From: Rhodococcus zopfii NBRC 100606 = JCM 9919
Lineage (GTDB): Bacteria; Actinomycetota; Actinomycetes; Mycobacteriales; Mycobacteriaceae
Direction of reading: 5' to 3'
Assembly (NCBI RefSeq): GCF_001895025.1
Contig: NZ_BCXI01000007.1
Location: forward strand, 1 to 64,000
DNA: 64,000 bases
This document shows positions 10,536 to 61,284 of this stretch, piece by piece. Numbering within the stretch: the first letter of the stretch is position 1; each line of letters starts with the position of its first letter. The notes under the pieces are model-generated. The model worked only from the letters and a program-made list of their open reading frames with translations. It was not told where the DNA came from and made no database searches. A program made the position numbers and the translations under genes.

Positions 10536-11885
10536 ATGTCCGCCGTCGTCGACGAGGTTCCGGGCGCGGCACGCTGGTGGGCGCGCGCCGCCGGACTCTG
10601 TGTGCTCGCCGCGATCGTCCTGCCGATCGCCGAGGCGGGTGTGCGTGGTGTCGTGCTGCTCGTGATCGTCGGAATCGCGGGGGTCGTGGTCACCGTCGCC
10701 GCGACCTACTGGTTCCTGTCCCGGCGAGGAGCACTGCGGGCGGCTGCGCTCGGGCTGGCCGTCCTGGTGCCGATCGCGGTGCTGGCGTTGTACATCCACC
10801 AGCGGCACCTGTGGGTCGTGGTCGTCGCGGGTGTTCTCATCGCACTCGCCCTCGTGTGTGCCCGCGCGGCATTGCGGATCCACCACGACGAGTCCGCCCA
10901 GCCCGAATATCCCGCGACGCCGGTGACTCGGCCGTTCCTGGTGATGAATCCTCGCTCCGGCGGCGGGAAGGTGATCAAGTTCGATCTGCAGCGCAAGGCC
11001 GAGGCATTGGGCGCCACGGTGGCGCTGCTCGACGGCCCCGAACCGGTCGACGTGGAGGCACTGGCCCTCGAGGCGGTCGCGCGCGGAGCCGACCTGCTCG
11101 GGGTGGCCGGTGGCGACGGCACCCAGGCGCTTGTCGCCGGGATCGCCGCCGCGCACGACCTCCCGTTCGTGGTGATCAGCGCCGGAACCCGCAACCATTT
11201 CGCGCTCGATCTGGGACTGGACCGCGACGATCCCGCCGCGTGCCTCGACGCGCTGCGCGACGGTGTCGAGTTGCACGTCGATCTCGGCGACATCGACGGC
11301 CGCACGTTCGTCAACAACGCCTCGTTCGGGGTGTACGCCGACATCGTGCAGAGCTCGGACTATCGCGACGACAAGACGGGGACCGTGCTCGAGATGCTGC
11401 CGGACCTGCTCGCGGGCAGTCGTGGGGTGCGGCTGCGTGCCCGAATCGACGCGGAACTCGTCGACGGCCCACAGGCGATCCTGGTCAGCAACGGCCCGTA
11501 CACCACCGACGACCTGGCCGGACTGGGCCGGCGTACCAGGCTCGACCGGGGCCGCCTCGGTGTGGTGGCGATCGCGGTGTCCGGCGCGCGGCAGGCGGTC
11601 GGTCTGCTCAACCGGGCGCGCAGCCGAGGCCTCGTGCAGCGCACCGCAACCGAGGTGGTCGTCGATGCCGACGCACCCGACATCCCGGTCGGTGTCGACG
11701 GCGAGTCCCTGCGCATGCCGACACCGGTGCGGTGCACGATCACCCCGGGTGCGCTCCGGGTACGGGTTCCCCGCAACCGCCCGGGCGTCCGTGTTCCCCC
11801 GCCTGCCCTGGATTGGGTGAGGCTGCGCGAACTCGCCCTGCCGCGTCGTCAGTCGTCGGGTTCCGCGTCCCCGGGGGTGCGCTGA
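10536..11885 (+). CDS. Membrane-anchored diacylglycerol/lipid kinase family protein
   Basis: 449 residues. About 110 N-terminal residues hold four hydrophobic helices. The catalytic domain of the diacylglycerol/sphingosine kinase family follows, with VMNPRSGGGK (about residue 135) and VAGGDGTQA (GGDGT near 192-196), the ATP-binding signature, then ISAGTRNHFALDLG and a C-terminal beta domain (VGVDGESL). It likely phosphorylates a membrane lipid such as diacylglycerol; fusion to membrane helices is less common than the soluble DgkB form. It follows the preceding membrane protein by 6 nt, and its 3' end overlaps the converging transporter gene by 37 nt. Confidence 0.8.
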   Translation: MSAVVDEVPGAARWWARAAGLCVLAAIVLPIAEAGVRGVVLLVIVGIAGVVVTVAATYWFLSRRGALRAAALGLAVLVPIAVLALYIHQRHLWVVVVAGVLIALALVCARAALRIHHDESAQPEYPATPVTRPFLVMNPRSGGGKVIKFDLQRKAEALGATVALLDGPEPVDVEALALEAVARGADLLGVAGGDGTQALVAGIAAAHDLPFVVISAGTRNHFALDLGLDRDDPAACLDALRDGVELHVDLGDIDGRTFVNNASFGVYADIVQSSDYRDDKTGTVLEMLPDLLAGSRGVRLRARIDAELVDGPQAILVSNGPYTTDDLAGLGRRTRLDRGRLGVVAIAVSGARQAVGLLNRARSRGLVQRTATEVVVDADAPDIPVGVDGESLRMPTPVRCTITPGALRVRVPRNRPGVRVPPPALDWVRLRELALPRRQSSGSASPGVR

Positions 11886-24624: not shown

Positions 24625-26337
24625 CTAGTGCTGTTCCGCCGCCTCGACGGCGGATTCTCCCGTTGACCGGGTTTCCTGGCCCAGGATGTCGAGAACCGCG
24701 AGGTAGGCGAACGTCATCGCGGGACCGATGGTGGCGCCGGGGCCGGCATAGGTGTGGCCCATGACGGGGGAGCTGGCGTTGCCGGCCGCGTAGAGGCCCT
24801 CGATGGCGGTGCCGTCCTCGCGGAGCACGCGGGCATCGACATCGGTGACGAGCCCGCCCTTGGTGCCGAGGTCGCCGGGCACCACCTTGAACGCGTAGAA
24901 CGGGGCCTTGCCGATGACGCCGAGGCTCGGGTTCGGCTTGTTCAGCGGATCACCGTAGTAGTGGTCGTACTGCGATTCGCCGCGGCCGAAATCCTCGTCC
25001 TTACCGATGCGGGCGAAACCGTTGAATCGCTCGACGGTCTCGGTGAGGGTCGCGGCGGGCACCCCGATCTTCTCGGCGAGTTCGCTCACGGACCCGGCCT
25101 TCACCAGCACACCGGCCTTCAGCCAGCGGCCGGGGAACGGCGTGCGCGGGGTGATTCCGGCGAACGTGTAGCGGTCGCGGTAACGCTGGTCGAGGATCAG
25201 CCACGCCGGGATGTTCTCGCCGGGACCGTCGCCGCGGCCGTGGGTTCCGCCGTACATGGCGTGCGTCGCCTCGACGTACGGGGCGGATTCGTTTCCGAAC
25301 CGCTTGCCGGAGCCGTTGACCATGATGCAGCCGGGCAGGCTGCGCTCGGACAGGGCGAACCAGGGACCGCCGGTCAGGGGGAACGACGGACCCCACCAGG
25401 CGTCGTCCATGAAATCCACGGCGCCACCGGCGGCTTGGCCGGCGCGGATGCCGTCGCCGGTGTTGGCCTTGGCTCCGACGGTCCACTCCGTGCCGATCGG
25501 GGCGCGCTGGTACTGCTTGCGCATCTCGTCGTTGTGCTCGAAACCGCCGCTGGCGAGGATGACACCCCTGCGGGCGCGGATGATCCGCTCTTCGCCGTCC
25601 GAGACCACCTTGACGCCGCGCACGGCCCCGTCCTCGACGACGAGATCGGTCAGGGCGGTGTTCAGCAGCAGGGGCACGTTCGCGTCGCGGAGGCCGATGC
25701 GCAGGCCGGCCATGAGTGCCTGGCCGCGGACGAGCAGGTGCTTCCTGGTGAGGTTCGCCCACACGAAGCGCGCGCCGACCTTCACGGCGCGCAGCGGTCC
25801 GCGCGGGTTGCGCATCAGCAGGTTCAGCCACTTGTAGTCGGCCTGCGTGATGACGAAGTTCTTCGGGGCGCGCGCGTAGTCGGGTTCGAGCGTGGCGAGG
25901 TCCGCGCCGAGGCGTCGTCCGTCGAACGGGCTGGGCTCGACCGAGCGGCCGCCGGCGCGTCCGCCCGGGGCCTCCGGGTAGTAGTCGGAATATCCGGGGA
26001 CCCACTGCAATTCGAGGGCACTGTGCTTCTGGACGAAGGACAGCATCTCGGGACCGCGGTCGATGTAGGTGTCGATCTTCTCGGCGGGCACCACGTCGCC
26101 GATGATGCTGTGCAGGTAGGTGCGTGCGGCCTCGGGGGTGTCGTCGACGCCGGCTGCCTTCAGCGCGTCGTTGTTGGGGATCCACACGCCGCCGCCGGAG
26201 CGGGCGCTCGAGCCGCCGTAGCAGGCGGCCTTCTCGATCACGACGACACTCGCGCCCTTGTTGGCGGCGGTGATCGCGGCGGTCATGCCGCCGGCGCCGC
26301 TGCCGACGACGACGATGTCGTACTCCTGCTTGCTCAT
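24625..26337 (-). CDS. kstD: 3-Ketosteroid delta1-dehydrogenase KstD
   Basis: 570 residues. An N-terminal FAD motif (VVGSGAGGMTAA, about residues 9-20) and GGSSARSGGGVW near 42 mark the flavoprotein. The C-terminal GDLGTKGGLVTD and AGNASSPVMGHTYAGPGATIGPAM segments match 3-ketosteroid delta1-dehydrogenases. It introduces the C1-C2 double bond in ring A, which with KshA opens ring B. The ATG at 26337 is only one base past a KstR box; no Shine-Dalgarno sequence fits between, so the message is probably leaderless or has a 1-3 nt leader. Confidence 0.93.
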   Translation of the reverse strand: MSKQEYDIVVVGSGAGGMTAAITAANKGASVVVIEKAACYGGSSARSGGGVWIPNNDALKAAGVDDTPEAARTYLHSIIGDVVPAEKIDTYIDRGPEMLSFVQKHSALELQWVPGYSDYYPEAPGGRAGGRSVEPSPFDGRRLGADLATLEPDYARAPKNFVITQADYKWLNLLMRNPRGPLRAVKVGARFVWANLTRKHLLVRGQALMAGLRIGLRDANVPLLLNTALTDLVVEDGAVRGVKVVSDGEERIIRARRGVILASGGFEHNDEMRKQYQRAPIGTEWTVGAKANTGDGIRAGQAAGGAVDFMDDAWWGPSFPLTGGPWFALSERSLPGCIMVNGSGKRFGNESAPYVEATHAMYGGTHGRGDGPGENIPAWLILDQRYRDRYTFAGITPRTPFPGRWLKAGVLVKAGSVSELAEKIGVPAATLTETVERFNGFARIGKDEDFGRGESQYDHYYGDPLNKPNPSLGVIGKAPFYAFKVVPGDLGTKGGLVTDVDARVLREDGTAIEGLYAAGNASSPVMGHTYAGPGATIGPAMTFAYLAVLDILGQETRSTGESAVEAAEQH

Positions 26338-26338
26338 G

Positions 26339-26352
26339 TAGAACACGTTATA
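26339..26352. promoter_or_regulatory. KstR box of the kstD operon
   Basis: TAGAACACGTTATA matches TnnAACnnGTTnnA at all defined positions. On the coding strand it lies in TTCTATAACGTGTTCTA, in which TATAAC serves as the -10 box; the same 17 bases occur in front of kshA. Confidence 0.88.
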
Positions 26353-26507: not shown

Positions 26508-26846
26508 CTATCTGGGGACGTTCAGTGAACCGTCGAGCACGGCCTGTTCGATGCTGGCCCGCAGGTTCGGGCAGCCCTCGCGCGGTGCGTTCGCGCGGTC
26601 GGTATCCCGGAAGACGGGGCACGTCTCGTTCGGATCGGACTGCCATTGCACACTCGTTTGGCGGAAGCTGTTCTTGCGCACCAGGACGCACGTGTCGCAG
26701 CTTCGGCATTCGATCTCACTGAGGCCCGAGTCCAGATAGTTGATTTTATCGATGGCGGTCTGGGCGGCGATCGCCTCGACCCGGTCCGGCTGATCCGCGA
26801 AACTCGGAGACTTGGCCCACCTGCTCTTCCGGGTCGAGGCGCTCAT
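26508..26846 (-). CDS. Small cysteine protein paired with KshA (copy 1)
   Basis: 112 residues, no recognised family. It carries C47-x2-C50-x25-C76-x15-C92 plus C53, with a conserved VLVRKNS and VQW in the loop. A homologue with the same C-x2-C-x25-C core lies directly after the second kshA (61027-61284). Its ATG is 2 nt past the kshA stop, so it is co-translated with KshA. Four conserved cysteines suggest bound zinc or an Fe-S cluster; roles in electron delivery to, or assembly of, the Rieske oxygenase are possible but unproven. Confidence 0.75.
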   Translation of the reverse strand: MSASTRKSRWAKSPSFADQPDRVEAIAAQTAIDKINYLDSGLSEIECRSCDTCVLVRKNSFRQTSVQWQSDPNETCPVFRDTDRANAPREGCPNLRASIEQAVLDGSLNVPR

Positions 26847-26848
26847 CG

Positions 26849-27994
26849 TCAGACCTCCGCGTCCTGCTTCTTCTCGGCTTCAGCGGCCTTGCGGGCCATG
26901 TTCTCGGCGACCTCCGCCTCCCAGGCTTCGTTGGCCTTGGCGGTGTCGACCTCGAACTCGAAGCGCTGGGTCATCTTGTCGGTGACCTCGGCCACATCGA
27001 CGTAGAACTGCTCGTACCAGCGGCGCAGCTGGTAGACCGGGCCGTCCTCCTCGCACAGCAGCGGATTCTCGATCTTGGTCTTGTTCTTCCAGATCTCGAC
27101 GTCCTGCAGGAAGCCCTCGCCGATGCCCTCGGTGAACTTGGCGGCCATCTTGTCCGACTGTTCGTCGGTCATGCCCGTCGGCCTCTTGACGATGATGCCG
27201 TACTGCAGCATGAACGAGTCCTGCGTGATCGGGTAGTGGCAGTTGATCAGCACCGACTCGACCTTGTATCCGCCGTAGCTGTTGGTCATCGGGTTGATCA
27301 TGTAGGACGGCCCGTAGTACGCCGCGTACGACTCGAGCGTCGACTCCAGGCCGTATTGGGTGGACATGCCCTTGTCGGGGCGGCCGCGGGTGTTGAGGAA
27401 CTGCTCCGCGACGTGACCCTCGAACACGTTCTTGAAGAACGTCGGGAATGCGTAGTGGATGTAGAAGAAATGCGCCATGTCGACGACGTTGTCGATGATC
27501 TCCCGGCAGTTGGAACCCTCGATGAGGATCTGGTTCCAGGTCCAGTCGGTCCACTCGCCGCTGCCGTACTGCTCGATGTCCGGGAGCGTGACCTCCGGCG
27601 GGGGCGGGTTGCCCTCGGGGTCGTTCCAGACGAAGAGCTGGCCGTGCTTCTCGGTGCTGATCCACGCGCGGGTGCGCGCGAGCGGCGGAACGCGGCGGGC
27701 GTAGGGAATGTCGGCGCACTTGCCGGTGCCGTTCCAGCGCCAGTCGTGGAACGGGCACGCGATGTTGTCGCCCTTGACCTCTCCCTGCGACAGGTCGCCG
27801 CCCATGTGGCGGCAGTAGGCGTCGAGGACCTTGAGGTCGCCGTTGGTGTCGGCCCAGACTACGAGCTTCGTGCCGAACGCGTGGACGGAGTGGGGCTTGC
27901 CGTCCCTGAACGTCTTGCTCAGGCCGAGGCAGTGCCAGCCTCGCGCGTACCGCGTCCGGGCTTCTCCGACGTCGATCTCGCGAATCGGTGCCAT
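26849..27994 (-). CDS. kshA: 3-Ketosteroid 9-alpha-hydroxylase oxygenase KshA
   Basis: 381 residues. The Rieske [2Fe-2S] site is C61-R-H63 and C80-P-F-H83. The mononuclear iron ligands are in NVVDMAHFFYIHY (H175, H180) with a later Asp in FLQDVEIW. It hydroxylates C9 of 3-ketosteroids with electrons from KshB, which is not in the window. The leader of about 30 nt has a GGGAAGTGAGGGG ribosome site. It is divergent from hsaA, with a KstR box 28 bp upstream. Confidence 0.95.
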   Translation of the reverse strand: MAPIREIDVGEARTRYARGWHCLGLSKTFRDGKPHSVHAFGTKLVVWADTNGDLKVLDAYCRHMGGDLSQGEVKGDNIACPFHDWRWNGTGKCADIPYARRVPPLARTRAWISTEKHGQLFVWNDPEGNPPPPEVTLPDIEQYGSGEWTDWTWNQILIEGSNCREIIDNVVDMAHFFYIHYAFPTFFKNVFEGHVAEQFLNTRGRPDKGMSTQYGLESTLESYAAYYGPSYMINPMTNSYGGYKVESVLINCHYPITQDSFMLQYGIIVKRPTGMTDEQSDKMAAKFTEGIGEGFLQDVEIWKNKTKIENPLLCEEDGPVYQLRRWYEQFYVDVAEVTDKMTQRFEFEVDTAKANEAWEAEVAENMARKAAEAEKKQDAEV

Positions 27995-28022: not shown

Positions 28023-28036
28023 TAGAACACGTTATA
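28023..28036. promoter_or_regulatory. KstR box of kshA
   Basis: TAGAACACGTTATA, identical to the kstD box. On the minus strand TATAAC forms the -10 box inside the operator. Confidence 0.9.
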
Positions 28037-28183: not shown

Positions 28184-31143
<2,960 letters not shown>

Positions 31144-31144
<1 letters not shown>

Positions 31145-59870: not shown

Positions 59871-61046
59871 GTGAGCTTGGAAACCTCCGGTACTTCCGAC
59901 ATCCGCGAGATCGTCACCGGTACTGCCCCCGCCCGCTTCGCCCGCGGCTGGCACTGCCTCGGGCTGGCGGAGAGCTTCCGGGACGGGAAGCCGCACTCCG
60001 TCGAGGCGTTCGGCACCAAGCTCGTCGTGTGGGCCGACGCCGCCGGGCAACTCGCGATCCTCGACGGGTACTGCCGGCACATGGGCGGCGACCTCAGCCA
60101 GGGCACGGTCAAGGGCGACGACATCGCCTGCCCGTTCCACGACTGGCGGTGGGGCGGCAAGGGCAAGTGCACGAACATCCCCTACGCCCGCCGGGTCCCG
60201 CCGCTCGCGAAGACGCGGGCGTGGCAAACCCTCGACCAGGACGGCCTCCTGTTCGTCTGGCACGATCCGGAAGGCGACCCGCCCCCGCCGGACGTCGCGA
60301 TCCCCCGTATCGAGGGCGCGCTGTCCGACGAATGGACCGAGTGGGTCTGGTACACCACCGCGGTCGACACCAACTGCCGCGAGATCATCGACAACATCGT
60401 CGACATGGCGCACTTCTTCTACGTGCACTACTCGTTCCCGACGTACTTCAAGAACGTGTTCGAAGGCCACGTCGCGACGCAGGTCATGCACGGTCAAGCC
60501 CGCGACGACATGCGCCCGAACACCCCGGGCCAGCCGAAACTTCTCGGCAACGAGTCCACCGCGTCGTACTTCGGTCCGTCGTTCATGATCGACGACCTGA
60601 AGTACCGGTACGAGGGTTACGACGTCGAGTCGGTGCTGCTCAACTGCCACTATCCGGTGTCCGCCGACAAGTTCGTGCTCATGTACGGCATGATCGTCAA
60701 GAAGTCGCCGCAGCTGCCCGCCGAGGTCGCTCTCGAAACCGCGAAGAAGTTCGGTGATTTCATCGCCCGCGGCTTCGAACAGGACATCGAGATCTGGAAG
60801 AACAAGACCCGGATCGAAAACCCGCTGCTGTGCGAGGAGGACGGCCCGGTCTACCAGCTGCGCCGCTGGTACGAGCAGTTCTACGTCGATGCCGCGGACG
60901 TCGCCCCGGAGATGACCGACCGGTTCGAGTTCGAGATGGACACCACGCGCCCGGTCGCGGCGTGGATGAAGGAAGTCGAGGCGAACGTTGCCGCCCGGGC
61001 GGCGCGCGCGACAGGGGCGGACACGGATGCAGCCCCTGCGGTGTAG
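59871..61046 (+). CDS. kshA2: Second KshA-type Rieske oxygenase
   Basis: 391 residues, with Rieske ligands C68-R-H70 and C87-P-F-H90 and iron ligands in DNIVDMAHFFYVHY (H181, H186). It is a clear paralogue of 26849-27994, sharing long blocks such as WKNKTRIENPLLCEEDGPVYQLRRWYEQFYVDAA (in parts), but carries a longer N-terminus and differs most at residues 190-250, the part facing the steroid. Rhodococci have several KshA paralogues with different steroid preference. It lacks a KstR box and uses promoter layout B. The small Cys gene overlaps its end by 20 nt. Confidence 0.9.
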   Translation: MSLETSGTSDIREIVTGTAPARFARGWHCLGLAESFRDGKPHSVEAFGTKLVVWADAAGQLAILDGYCRHMGGDLSQGTVKGDDIACPFHDWRWGGKGKCTNIPYARRVPPLAKTRAWQTLDQDGLLFVWHDPEGDPPPPDVAIPRIEGALSDEWTEWVWYTTAVDTNCREIIDNIVDMAHFFYVHYSFPTYFKNVFEGHVATQVMHGQARDDMRPNTPGQPKLLGNESTASYFGPSFMIDDLKYRYEGYDVESVLLNCHYPVSADKFVLMYGMIVKKSPQLPAEVALETAKKFGDFIARGFEQDIEIWKNKTRIENPLLCEEDGPVYQLRRWYEQFYVDAADVAPEMTDRFEFEMDTTRPVAAWMKEVEANVAARAARATGADTDAAPAV

Positions 61047-61284
61047 TGAATGCCGGGCTCAGGTGCTGGTGCGGAAGAACAGCTGGGAGCACACCGAGGT
61101 CCAGTGGAATGCGCAGGCGCGGAGCCTCTGCCATGAGTTCGGCAGCGCGTCCGCGTCGGGGCGGCGACCGGGCGCTCCGGTGCTCAGCTGTTCGGCGATG
61201 GAAGCGGACCTCACCCGCGCCGCAGCCGAGGGGCTGATCGACGTCCTCGACGACGCACCCATCCCCGGCCCGATCCTCCAGTAG
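61027..61284 (+). CDS. Small cysteine protein paired with KshA (copy 2)
   Basis: 85 residues, homologous to the 26508-26846 protein: C6-x2-C9-x25-C35-x19-C55 with the same VLVRKNS and VQW residues in the loop. ATG 61027 lies inside the end of kshA2 (20-nt overlap), so it is translated together with the oxygenase. The third Cys of the copy-1 CxxCxxC motif is Gln12 here. No known family. Confidence 0.72.
   Translation: MQPLRCSECRAQVLVRKNSWEHTEVQWNAQARSLCHEFGSASASGRRPGAPVLSCSAMEADLTRAAAEGLIDVLDDAPIPGPILQ

What the first reader, a model, noticed from the sequence alone, without database searches (positions are those of the whole stretch)
26508..27994. An unnamed four-cysteine protein accompanies each KshA oxygenase
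Both kshA genes in the window are followed at once by a small gene: 2 nt after kshA1 (112 residues) and overlapping kshA2 by 20 nt (85 residues). The two proteins share C-x2-C-x25-C-x15/19-C with an invariant VLVRKNS and a VQW motif, while the flanking parts differ. The two kshA units have different promoters, so the link is not simply shared operon history. A metal-binding protein translated together with a Rieske oxygenase may be an extra electron carrier, a cluster-assembly helper or a stabilising subunit of KshA. I know of no described function.
Basis: partly seen in the sequence, partly recalled or inferred. Interest (0 to 1): 0.78.

Follow-up and report, generated by a model that had tools for sequence, protein, structure and literature searches.

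The report
Unnamed third gene of steroid hydroxylase
A small, never-named protein with four fixed cysteines is usually encoded directly beside the steroid-ring-opening enzyme KshA in steroid-eating actinobacteria, sometimes between KshA and its reductase, which suggests that a textbook two-part enzyme may have a third part whose role is unknown.

Summary
Window genes 26508-26846(-) and 61027-61284(+) directly follow kshA1 and kshA2. They form one family without a match in Pfam, NCBIfam or PHROGs. In 116 distinct members, four cysteines, one Thr and one Trp are invariant. Of 118 loci examined, 106 directly adjoin kshA (104 after it, 2 before it); [quoted passage not shown] Of 298 genomes of the order, 100 encode KshA, and these same 100 encode the small family strongly; a control shows that another steroid gene behaves alike, so co-occurrence marks the pathway and neighbourhood marks KshA. 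KshA and the small protein diverged together (r = 0.75). Function is not shown. I favour a metal-binding, perhaps zinc-ribbon-like, accessory subunit that stabilises KshA or helps it meet KshB. The bolder reading, an electron carrier missing since KSH was first purified as a three-component system, is not excluded. Against an obligatory role: KshA plus KshB alone are reported active in vitro; 20 of 60 KshA copies have no such gene on either side; two proteobacterial KshA loci lack it. Nine literature searches gave no described function.

The parts
26508..26846 (-). small four-cysteine gene 1 (112 aa), directly after kshA1; predicted N-terminal helix plus cysteine core
26571..26708 (-). conserved core of gene 1, first to last conserved cysteine (C47..C92)
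26849..27994 (-). kshA1, oxygenase of 3-ketosteroid 9-alpha-hydroxylase
28023..28036 (.). KstR-type palindrome (motif recalled) upstream of kshA1
   Evidence: 2 exact matches in the window, 0.11 expected
24625..26346 (-). KstD-like 3-ketosteroid dehydrogenase gene (name by eye; used as a reference query), downstream of the small gene, with its own KstR-type box at 26339-26352
59871..61046 (+). kshA2, second KshA
61027..61284 (+). small four-cysteine gene 2 (85 aa), overlaps kshA2 by 20 bases; lacks the N-terminal part of gene 1
61042..61191 (+). conserved core of gene 2 (C6..C55)

Best explanation
The small protein is an accessory subunit of the KSH system. It is translated in step with KshA (gene spacing: shown; coupling: inferred), binds a metal through four invariant cysteines in a ribbon-like fold, more likely zinc than an iron-sulphur cluster (inferred), attaches to KshA through the conserved V-x-V-K-K-x-S / T-S-[VI]-Q-W hairpin (inferred), and keeps the labile oxygenase folded and loaded or positions it for the shared reductase KshB (inferred). 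It would be needed for full activity in the cell but not for basic turnover of overproduced KshA plus KshB.
For: Adjacency: 12 of 12 loci of the first scan lie 1-2 bases after a KshA gene; 38 of 51 matches in 33 genomes chosen from 31 genera; 51 of 54 matches outside the window's family seen directly after KshA, 3 not looked at; 106 of 118 distinct loci adjoin KshA. Of the 118, 23 have kshB directly downstream; they come from six families of genomes (f1, f2, f4, f83, f86, f88). In 102 pairs a start codon lies between 23 bases before and 13 after the kshA stop, 37 overlapping (the start nearest to the stop was chosen, which favours short gaps). Four Cys, Thr and Trp invariant in 116 of 116. Co-divergence with KshA: r 0.75 over 70 units, largest of 1000 permutations 0.19. 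KshA is reported to lose activity on purification, and R. rhodochrous KshA, purified in air, to stay active only when purified with KshB (PMC4064121, section 4), so a stabiliser would have work to do. Two low-confidence models agree on three strands, with the C-x2-C turn between strands 1 and 2, then helices; sub-threshold Zn-ribbon profile matches in 6 of 54 members.
Against: No metal, binding or mutant data. Models are weak (mean pLDDT 63.9 and 66.8) and matched no solved fold. KshA plus KshB alone are reported active in vitro (PMC4064121, PMC6153880). 22 of 60 strong KshA copies have no small gene directly after them; two of these have it just before, so 20 of 60 have none on either side, and 9 have none in the 8-10 kb fetched. 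Two actinobacterial plasmid loci (L147, L148) and two proteobacterial KshA loci (L145, L146) lack it too. 9 of 118 copies follow a KstD-like gene instead. A KshA C-terminal tail motif did not clearly separate KshA copies with and without the gene.
Confidence: 0.45

Rival explanations
1. It is a third redox component: an iron-binding or iron-sulphur electron carrier between KshB and KshA, in the gene position that ferredoxins can take in three-component Rieske systems (that gene order is recalled).
For: Gene order oxygenase-small-reductase in 23 of 118 loci; four invariant cysteines. The first KSH preparation, from Nocardia sp. [quoted passage not shown] Added free plant-type ferredoxin improved androstenedione conversion in a system of surrogate reductase plus KshA (PMC10992505, abstract).
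Against: KshB carries its own [2Fe-2S] cluster and KshAB suffices in vitro. The cysteine spacing fits no ferredoxin or rubredoxin pattern that I know (recalled), and the C3-C4 distance varies from 11 to 23. No ferredoxin family matched: best Fer4 0.19 in 1 of 32 members.
Confidence: 0.2
2. It is an assembly helper that delivers or guards the Rieske cluster or the mononuclear iron while KshA folds, then leaves.
For: Tight spacing to kshA, four cysteines, reported lability of KshA.
Against: No match to a cluster-assembly family over a cut-off. Recombinant KshA from E. coli is reported active without it. Copies beside a KstD-like gene (9 of 118) are not explained.
Confidence: 0.15
3. It serves the ring-A/B steroid pathway rather than KshA alone, for example as a scaffold that holds KshA, KshB and KstD together or as a small regulator; its place by kshA reflects cluster architecture.
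For: 9 of 118 copies follow a KstD-like gene and one an HsaB-like gene; in 8 of these 9 and in the HsaB case a KshA lies about 4-18 kb away on the same contig. 15 of 118 have KstD downstream. The control gene HsaC is found in all 32 KshA genomes that I place in a draw of 101, so genome-level co-occurrence is not specific to KshA.
Against: KshA is a direct neighbour in 106 of 118 loci, in two old KshA lineages and outside the family of the window.
Confidence: 0.15

Closest known systems
Ferredoxin component of three-component Rieske oxygenases
   Same: Small, cysteine-bearing, encoded between oxygenase and reductase in 23 of 118 loci
   Different: No ferredoxin family match; cysteine spacing unlike ferredoxins (pattern recalled); KSH works in vitro without a third component (PMC4064121, PMC6153880)
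Zinc-ribbon proteins (e.g. Zn_ribbon_RPAB4, PF03604)
   Same: C-x2-C turn between two predicted strands; sub-threshold profile matches in 6 of 54 members, best 0.0027
   Different: Second cysteine pair is 11-23 residues apart, not C-x2-C; no match over a curated cut-off
DmmA-like subunit of dimethylamine monooxygenase (PF22289, NF041259)
   Same: Cysteine-rich protein encoded beside a reductase-like gene (by eye); sub-threshold matches of our family in 2 of 32 members, best 0.0039
   Different: DmmA-like sequences have C-x2-C...C-x2-C; profile-profile probability 3.7%: not shown to be the same family
M. tuberculosis Rv3527, hypothetical protein numbered directly after kshA Rv3526
   Same: Presumed member by gene order (inference; its sequence was not compared). 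[quoted passage not shown]
   Different: No function described in the passages seen; membership not tested here

Membership tests
Component of the KSH (KshAB) system | Encoded with kshA or kshB across separate lineages | tested here: met
   not for every KshA copy (20 of 60 have none on either side)
Component of the KSH (KshAB) system | Binds KshA or KshB, or changes KSH activity | not testable with these tools
   no binding or activity data
Ferredoxin of three-component Rieske oxygenases | Member of a ferredoxin profile family | tested here: not met
   nothing over a cut-off; Fer4 only 0.19 in 1 of 32
Ferredoxin of three-component Rieske oxygenases | Ferredoxin cysteine pattern (recalled) | tested here: not met
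   C-x2-C in 114 of 116 (C-x1-C in 2), then x23..26-C, then x11..23-C
Ferredoxin of three-component Rieske oxygenases | Carries an iron-sulphur cluster that passes electrons | not testable with these tools
   needs purified protein
Zinc ribbon | Two C-x2-C (or C-x2-H) knuckles on a three-stranded sheet | tested here: inconclusive
   one knuckle and three strands predicted at low confidence; second pair widely spaced; fold searches without a significant match
DmmA-like_C (PF22289) | Profile match over the cut-off and C-x2-C...C-x2-C | tested here: not met
Named family in Pfam, NCBIfam or PHROGs | Match over the library's cut-off | tested here: not met
   P0001, P0002: none up to E 10; 32 members of A2; 54 members of A4, Pfam only; P0001, P0002, PHROGs: none up to E 1

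The most novel reading that the evidence does not exclude
KSH in actinobacteria is really a three-component Rieske system, and this protein is the long-missing third part: a new kind of cysteine-ligated metal protein in the ferredoxin position, matching one of the two iron-sulphur proteins of the 1982 Nocardia preparation.
Probability: 0.18. Interest if true: 0.85.

Novelty: new variant of a known kind. Interest (0 to 1): 0.64.

Why it matters
KSH starts the opening of the steroid ring system, is relevant for making pharmaceutical steroids, and is described as essential for M. tuberculosis pathogenicity (PMC4064121, abstract). It is treated as a two-component enzyme. A conserved third gene beside it, found in each of the 100 KshA genomes among 298 searched in the order, makes three open points testable: why the first preparation had three components, why KshA is hard to keep active, and what the hypothetical gene after kshA does.

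Tried and rejected
Natural fusion of the small protein with KshA as proof of contact: long open frames looked promising, but where checked they were read-through frames; no in-frame fusion among 102 pairs.

DmmA-like family: weak Pfam and NCBIfam matches followed with 11 DmmA-like sequences; profile-profile probability 3.7%. Set aside.

KshA C-terminal tail as docking site: motif W-x2-[ED][VI]-x2-N in 67 of 70 KshA with the gene directly after, 10 of 10 with it elsewhere in the cluster, 5 of 8 without it (one of the 8 cut off by a contig end), 0 of 1 with the gene before kshA; no tail was found by my pattern in the two proteobacterial KshA, one plasmid copy and one other. Not discriminating.

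Genome co-occurrence as evidence for KshA in particular: set aside after the HsaC control.

Literature: nine searches of the open-licence library and the passages named in the full report gave no described function for the protein; most subscription papers are not in that library.

Full report
What is there. The window (68% G+C; [quoted passage not shown] Each is followed at once by a small gene, 26508-26846(-), 112 aa, and 61027-61284(+), 85 aa. P0001 alone finds the second gene at E 1.1e-6. The own genome (6.3 Mb, 146 contigs) has two KshA genes and two strong members of the small family, both pairs in this window; a third weak hit (E 0.42) is not credible. Gene 1 is under purifying selection: dN/dS 0.10-0.14 against three relatives.

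Not a named family. P0001 and P0002 match nothing in Pfam or NCBIfam up to E 10 and nothing in PHROGs up to E 1. Scanning the 32 members of profile A2 (Pfam, NCBIfam) and the 54 of A4 (Pfam) gave only scattered weak matches.

Adjacency. All 12 loci of the first scan lie 1-2 bases after a KshA gene. In the family-wide search 239 of 301 genomes had a match. For 33 genomes chosen by me from 31 genera (22 with and 11 without a match there), all matches of the small protein and of KshA_C were compared: 38 of 51 small genes start within 600 bases after the KshA_C end on the same strand. The other 13 were fetched: two lie just before kshA, eight next to or one gene away from a KstD-like gene, one at the edge of a short contig, one by an old-yellow-enzyme-like gene, one by an HsaB-like gene (names by eye; KstD and HsaB also by tblastn). 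In nine of the 13 a KshA lies about 4-18 kb away on the same contig. Conversely, 22 of the 60 strong KshA genes (over 250 bits) have no small gene directly after them: two have it just before, nine have it elsewhere in the cluster, two are cut off by a contig end, and nine have none in the 8-10 kb fetched. Outside the window's family, 47 of 54 matches directly follow KshA by coordinates; of the other seven, whose KshA row was not in the truncated list, four were fetched and directly follow KshA too, and three were not looked at. Over 118 distinct loci, tblastn with seven reference proteins gives KshA upstream in 102, KstD in 9, HsaB in 1, none in 6; of these six, two precede kshA and two (L070, L124) follow kshA by coordinates. 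So 106 of 118 adjoin KshA. The loci are not a random sample: most came from best-scoring matches, often with 1.5 kb flanks, and the 13 non-adjacent ones above were fetched on purpose.

Between oxygenase and reductase. Downstream of the 118, the reductase gene kshB is found in 23 and KstD in 15 with kshA upstream. The 23 come from six families of genomes: seven loci in the window's own family f1, one each in f2 and f4, two in f83, four in f86 and eight in f88. These eight f88 loci have the order kstD-kshA-small-kshB, mostly with overlaps of a few bases (L149-L152, L154-L156, L158 = L140). In 102 pairs a start codon of the small gene lies between 23 bases before and 13 bases after the kshA stop, 37 of them overlapping; most common are 2 bases after (36) and overlaps of 1 or 4 bases (17 and 15) (the start nearest to the stop was taken, which favours short gaps). 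No in-frame fusion exists among them.

Co-occurrence and its control. In 298 genomes of the order, KshA (E <= 1e-60) is in 100 and the small family (E <= 0.01) in 101; the lists are the same except G755, a weak hit at 0.0059. In 396 genomes of the phylum, KshA is in 15 and the small family in the same 15 and two more at E 0.001 and 0.007; one of the 15 is outside the order (G642), with kshA, small gene and kshB in a row (L157). But HsaC, another steroid gene, behaves alike: in a draw of 101 genomes it is found in 35, among them all 32 KshA genomes that I place in that draw, at E 7e-80 or better, and three others with weaker hits (46 genomes without a match are not named in the answer, so I took the draw from the run of handle numbers). 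Co-occurrence therefore marks the pathway; the neighbourhood marks KshA. A Burkholderia and a Sphingobium KshA locus show no small gene within 6 kb, and two actinobacterial plasmid loci none within 8 kb (L147, L148).

Anatomy. In 116 distinct members (the window's included), four cysteines, one Thr and one Trp are invariant; V-x-V, K, S, Q, L, I, A and G are frequent (84-99% of rows). Spacing: C-x2-C in 114 of 116 (C-x1-C in 2), then 23-26 (25 in 103), then 11-23 residues (18 in 65). The P0001 type has about 40 extra N-terminal residues that the P0002 type lacks. AlphaFold2 models on 14 rows are of low confidence (mean pLDDT 63.9 and 66.8) but agree: three strands with the C-x2-C turn between the first two, short helices around the third cysteine and a helix after the fourth; P0001 has one more helix at its N-terminus. 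Fold and sequence searches of solved structures gave nothing usable.

History. KshA and small-protein distances correlate at r = 0.75 over 70 units under 90% KshA identity; the largest of 1000 permutations is 0.19. Shared descent of a linked unit explains this without direct contact. In a tree of 90 KshA rows (70 of them chosen because the gene is adjacent, and six fetched loci gave no row) the kshA1-type group has the gene adjacent in 50 of 50 rows, the weakly supported group with kshA2 in 16 of 20, and a third group has it elsewhere in the cluster in 9, absent in 5, before kshA in 2 and after kshA in 3 of 19. So the two window units are two old lineages, not a recent copy. Their different promoters (KstR-type box before kshA1 and the KstD-like gene only) do not argue against shared history.

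What is known. Seen: PMC4064121 (review: abstract, section 4 whole, passages), PMC6153880 (passages), PMC10992505 (abstract and outline), PMC6429209, PMC2905415, PMC3207917, PMC4881515, PMC3068626, PMC9782250, PMC6680482, PMC4967059, PMC5520151 (passages), PMC3182942 (term search, no hit). Strijewski 1982, Capyk 2009 and Petrusma 2009 were not seen, only as cited. The review says that KSH was first partly purified from Nocardia sp. [quoted passage not shown] It also says that M. smegmatis KshA activity was greatly reduced on purification and that R. rhodochrous KshA, purified in air, stayed active only together with KshB, while M. tuberculosis KshA was purified anaerobically; KshA plus KshB made in E. 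coli convert androstenedione (reconstitution also in PMC6153880). Free ferredoxin can feed KshA. In M. tuberculosis the gene numbered after kshA, Rv3527, is listed as a hypothetical protein proven essential in macrophages and mice (PMC6429209), as hypoxia-repressed and reaeration-induced (PMC2905415), and in a table of 3' untranslated transcripts (PMC3207917). That Rv3527 belongs to this family is my inference from gene order.

Judgement. Shown: a conserved, unnamed, four-cysteine family tied to kshA by position and co-divergence in most but not all copies. Inferred: metal binding, contact with KshA, a supporting role. I put 0.45 on an accessory subunit that stabilises or positions KshA, 0.2 on an electron carrier, 0.15 on an assembly helper, 0.15 on a wider pathway role, and the rest on something else. 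It sits like a third component of a Rieske system by position; it is not a ferredoxin by family or cysteine pattern.

Noticed in passing
window 42121, 42722, 53994, 56115: Four near-matches (1 mismatch) to a recalled KstR2-type palindrome, 0.38 expected by chance; kshA2 seems to lie in a second steroid cluster, unlike kshA1.
   Followed up: no
G000:C7:67979-68854, just right of the window: A second HsaC-like gene (46% identical to the one at 30245-31144) close to the kshA2 cluster.
   Followed up: no
L095, L098, L099: KshA-like proteins of 374-379 aa near TetR-like regulator genes (by eye) and without the small gene; what they hydroxylate is unknown.
   Followed up: partly
L076, L077, L079-L084, L122: Copies of the small gene next to a KstD-like gene; in 8 of the 9 a KshA lies 4-18 kb away on the same contig: the small gene can leave kshA but stays in the steroid cluster.
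   Followed up: partly
G000:C11:8727-8861 and 11214-11345 (L175, L181): Two DmmA-like_C genes close together in the own genome, the first followed by a reductase-like gene (by eye).
   Followed up: no
window 26508-26846, residue C53: A fifth cysteine, three residues after C50, occurs in part of the family only: in P0001 and L001-L011, not in P0002 or L012.
   Followed up: no
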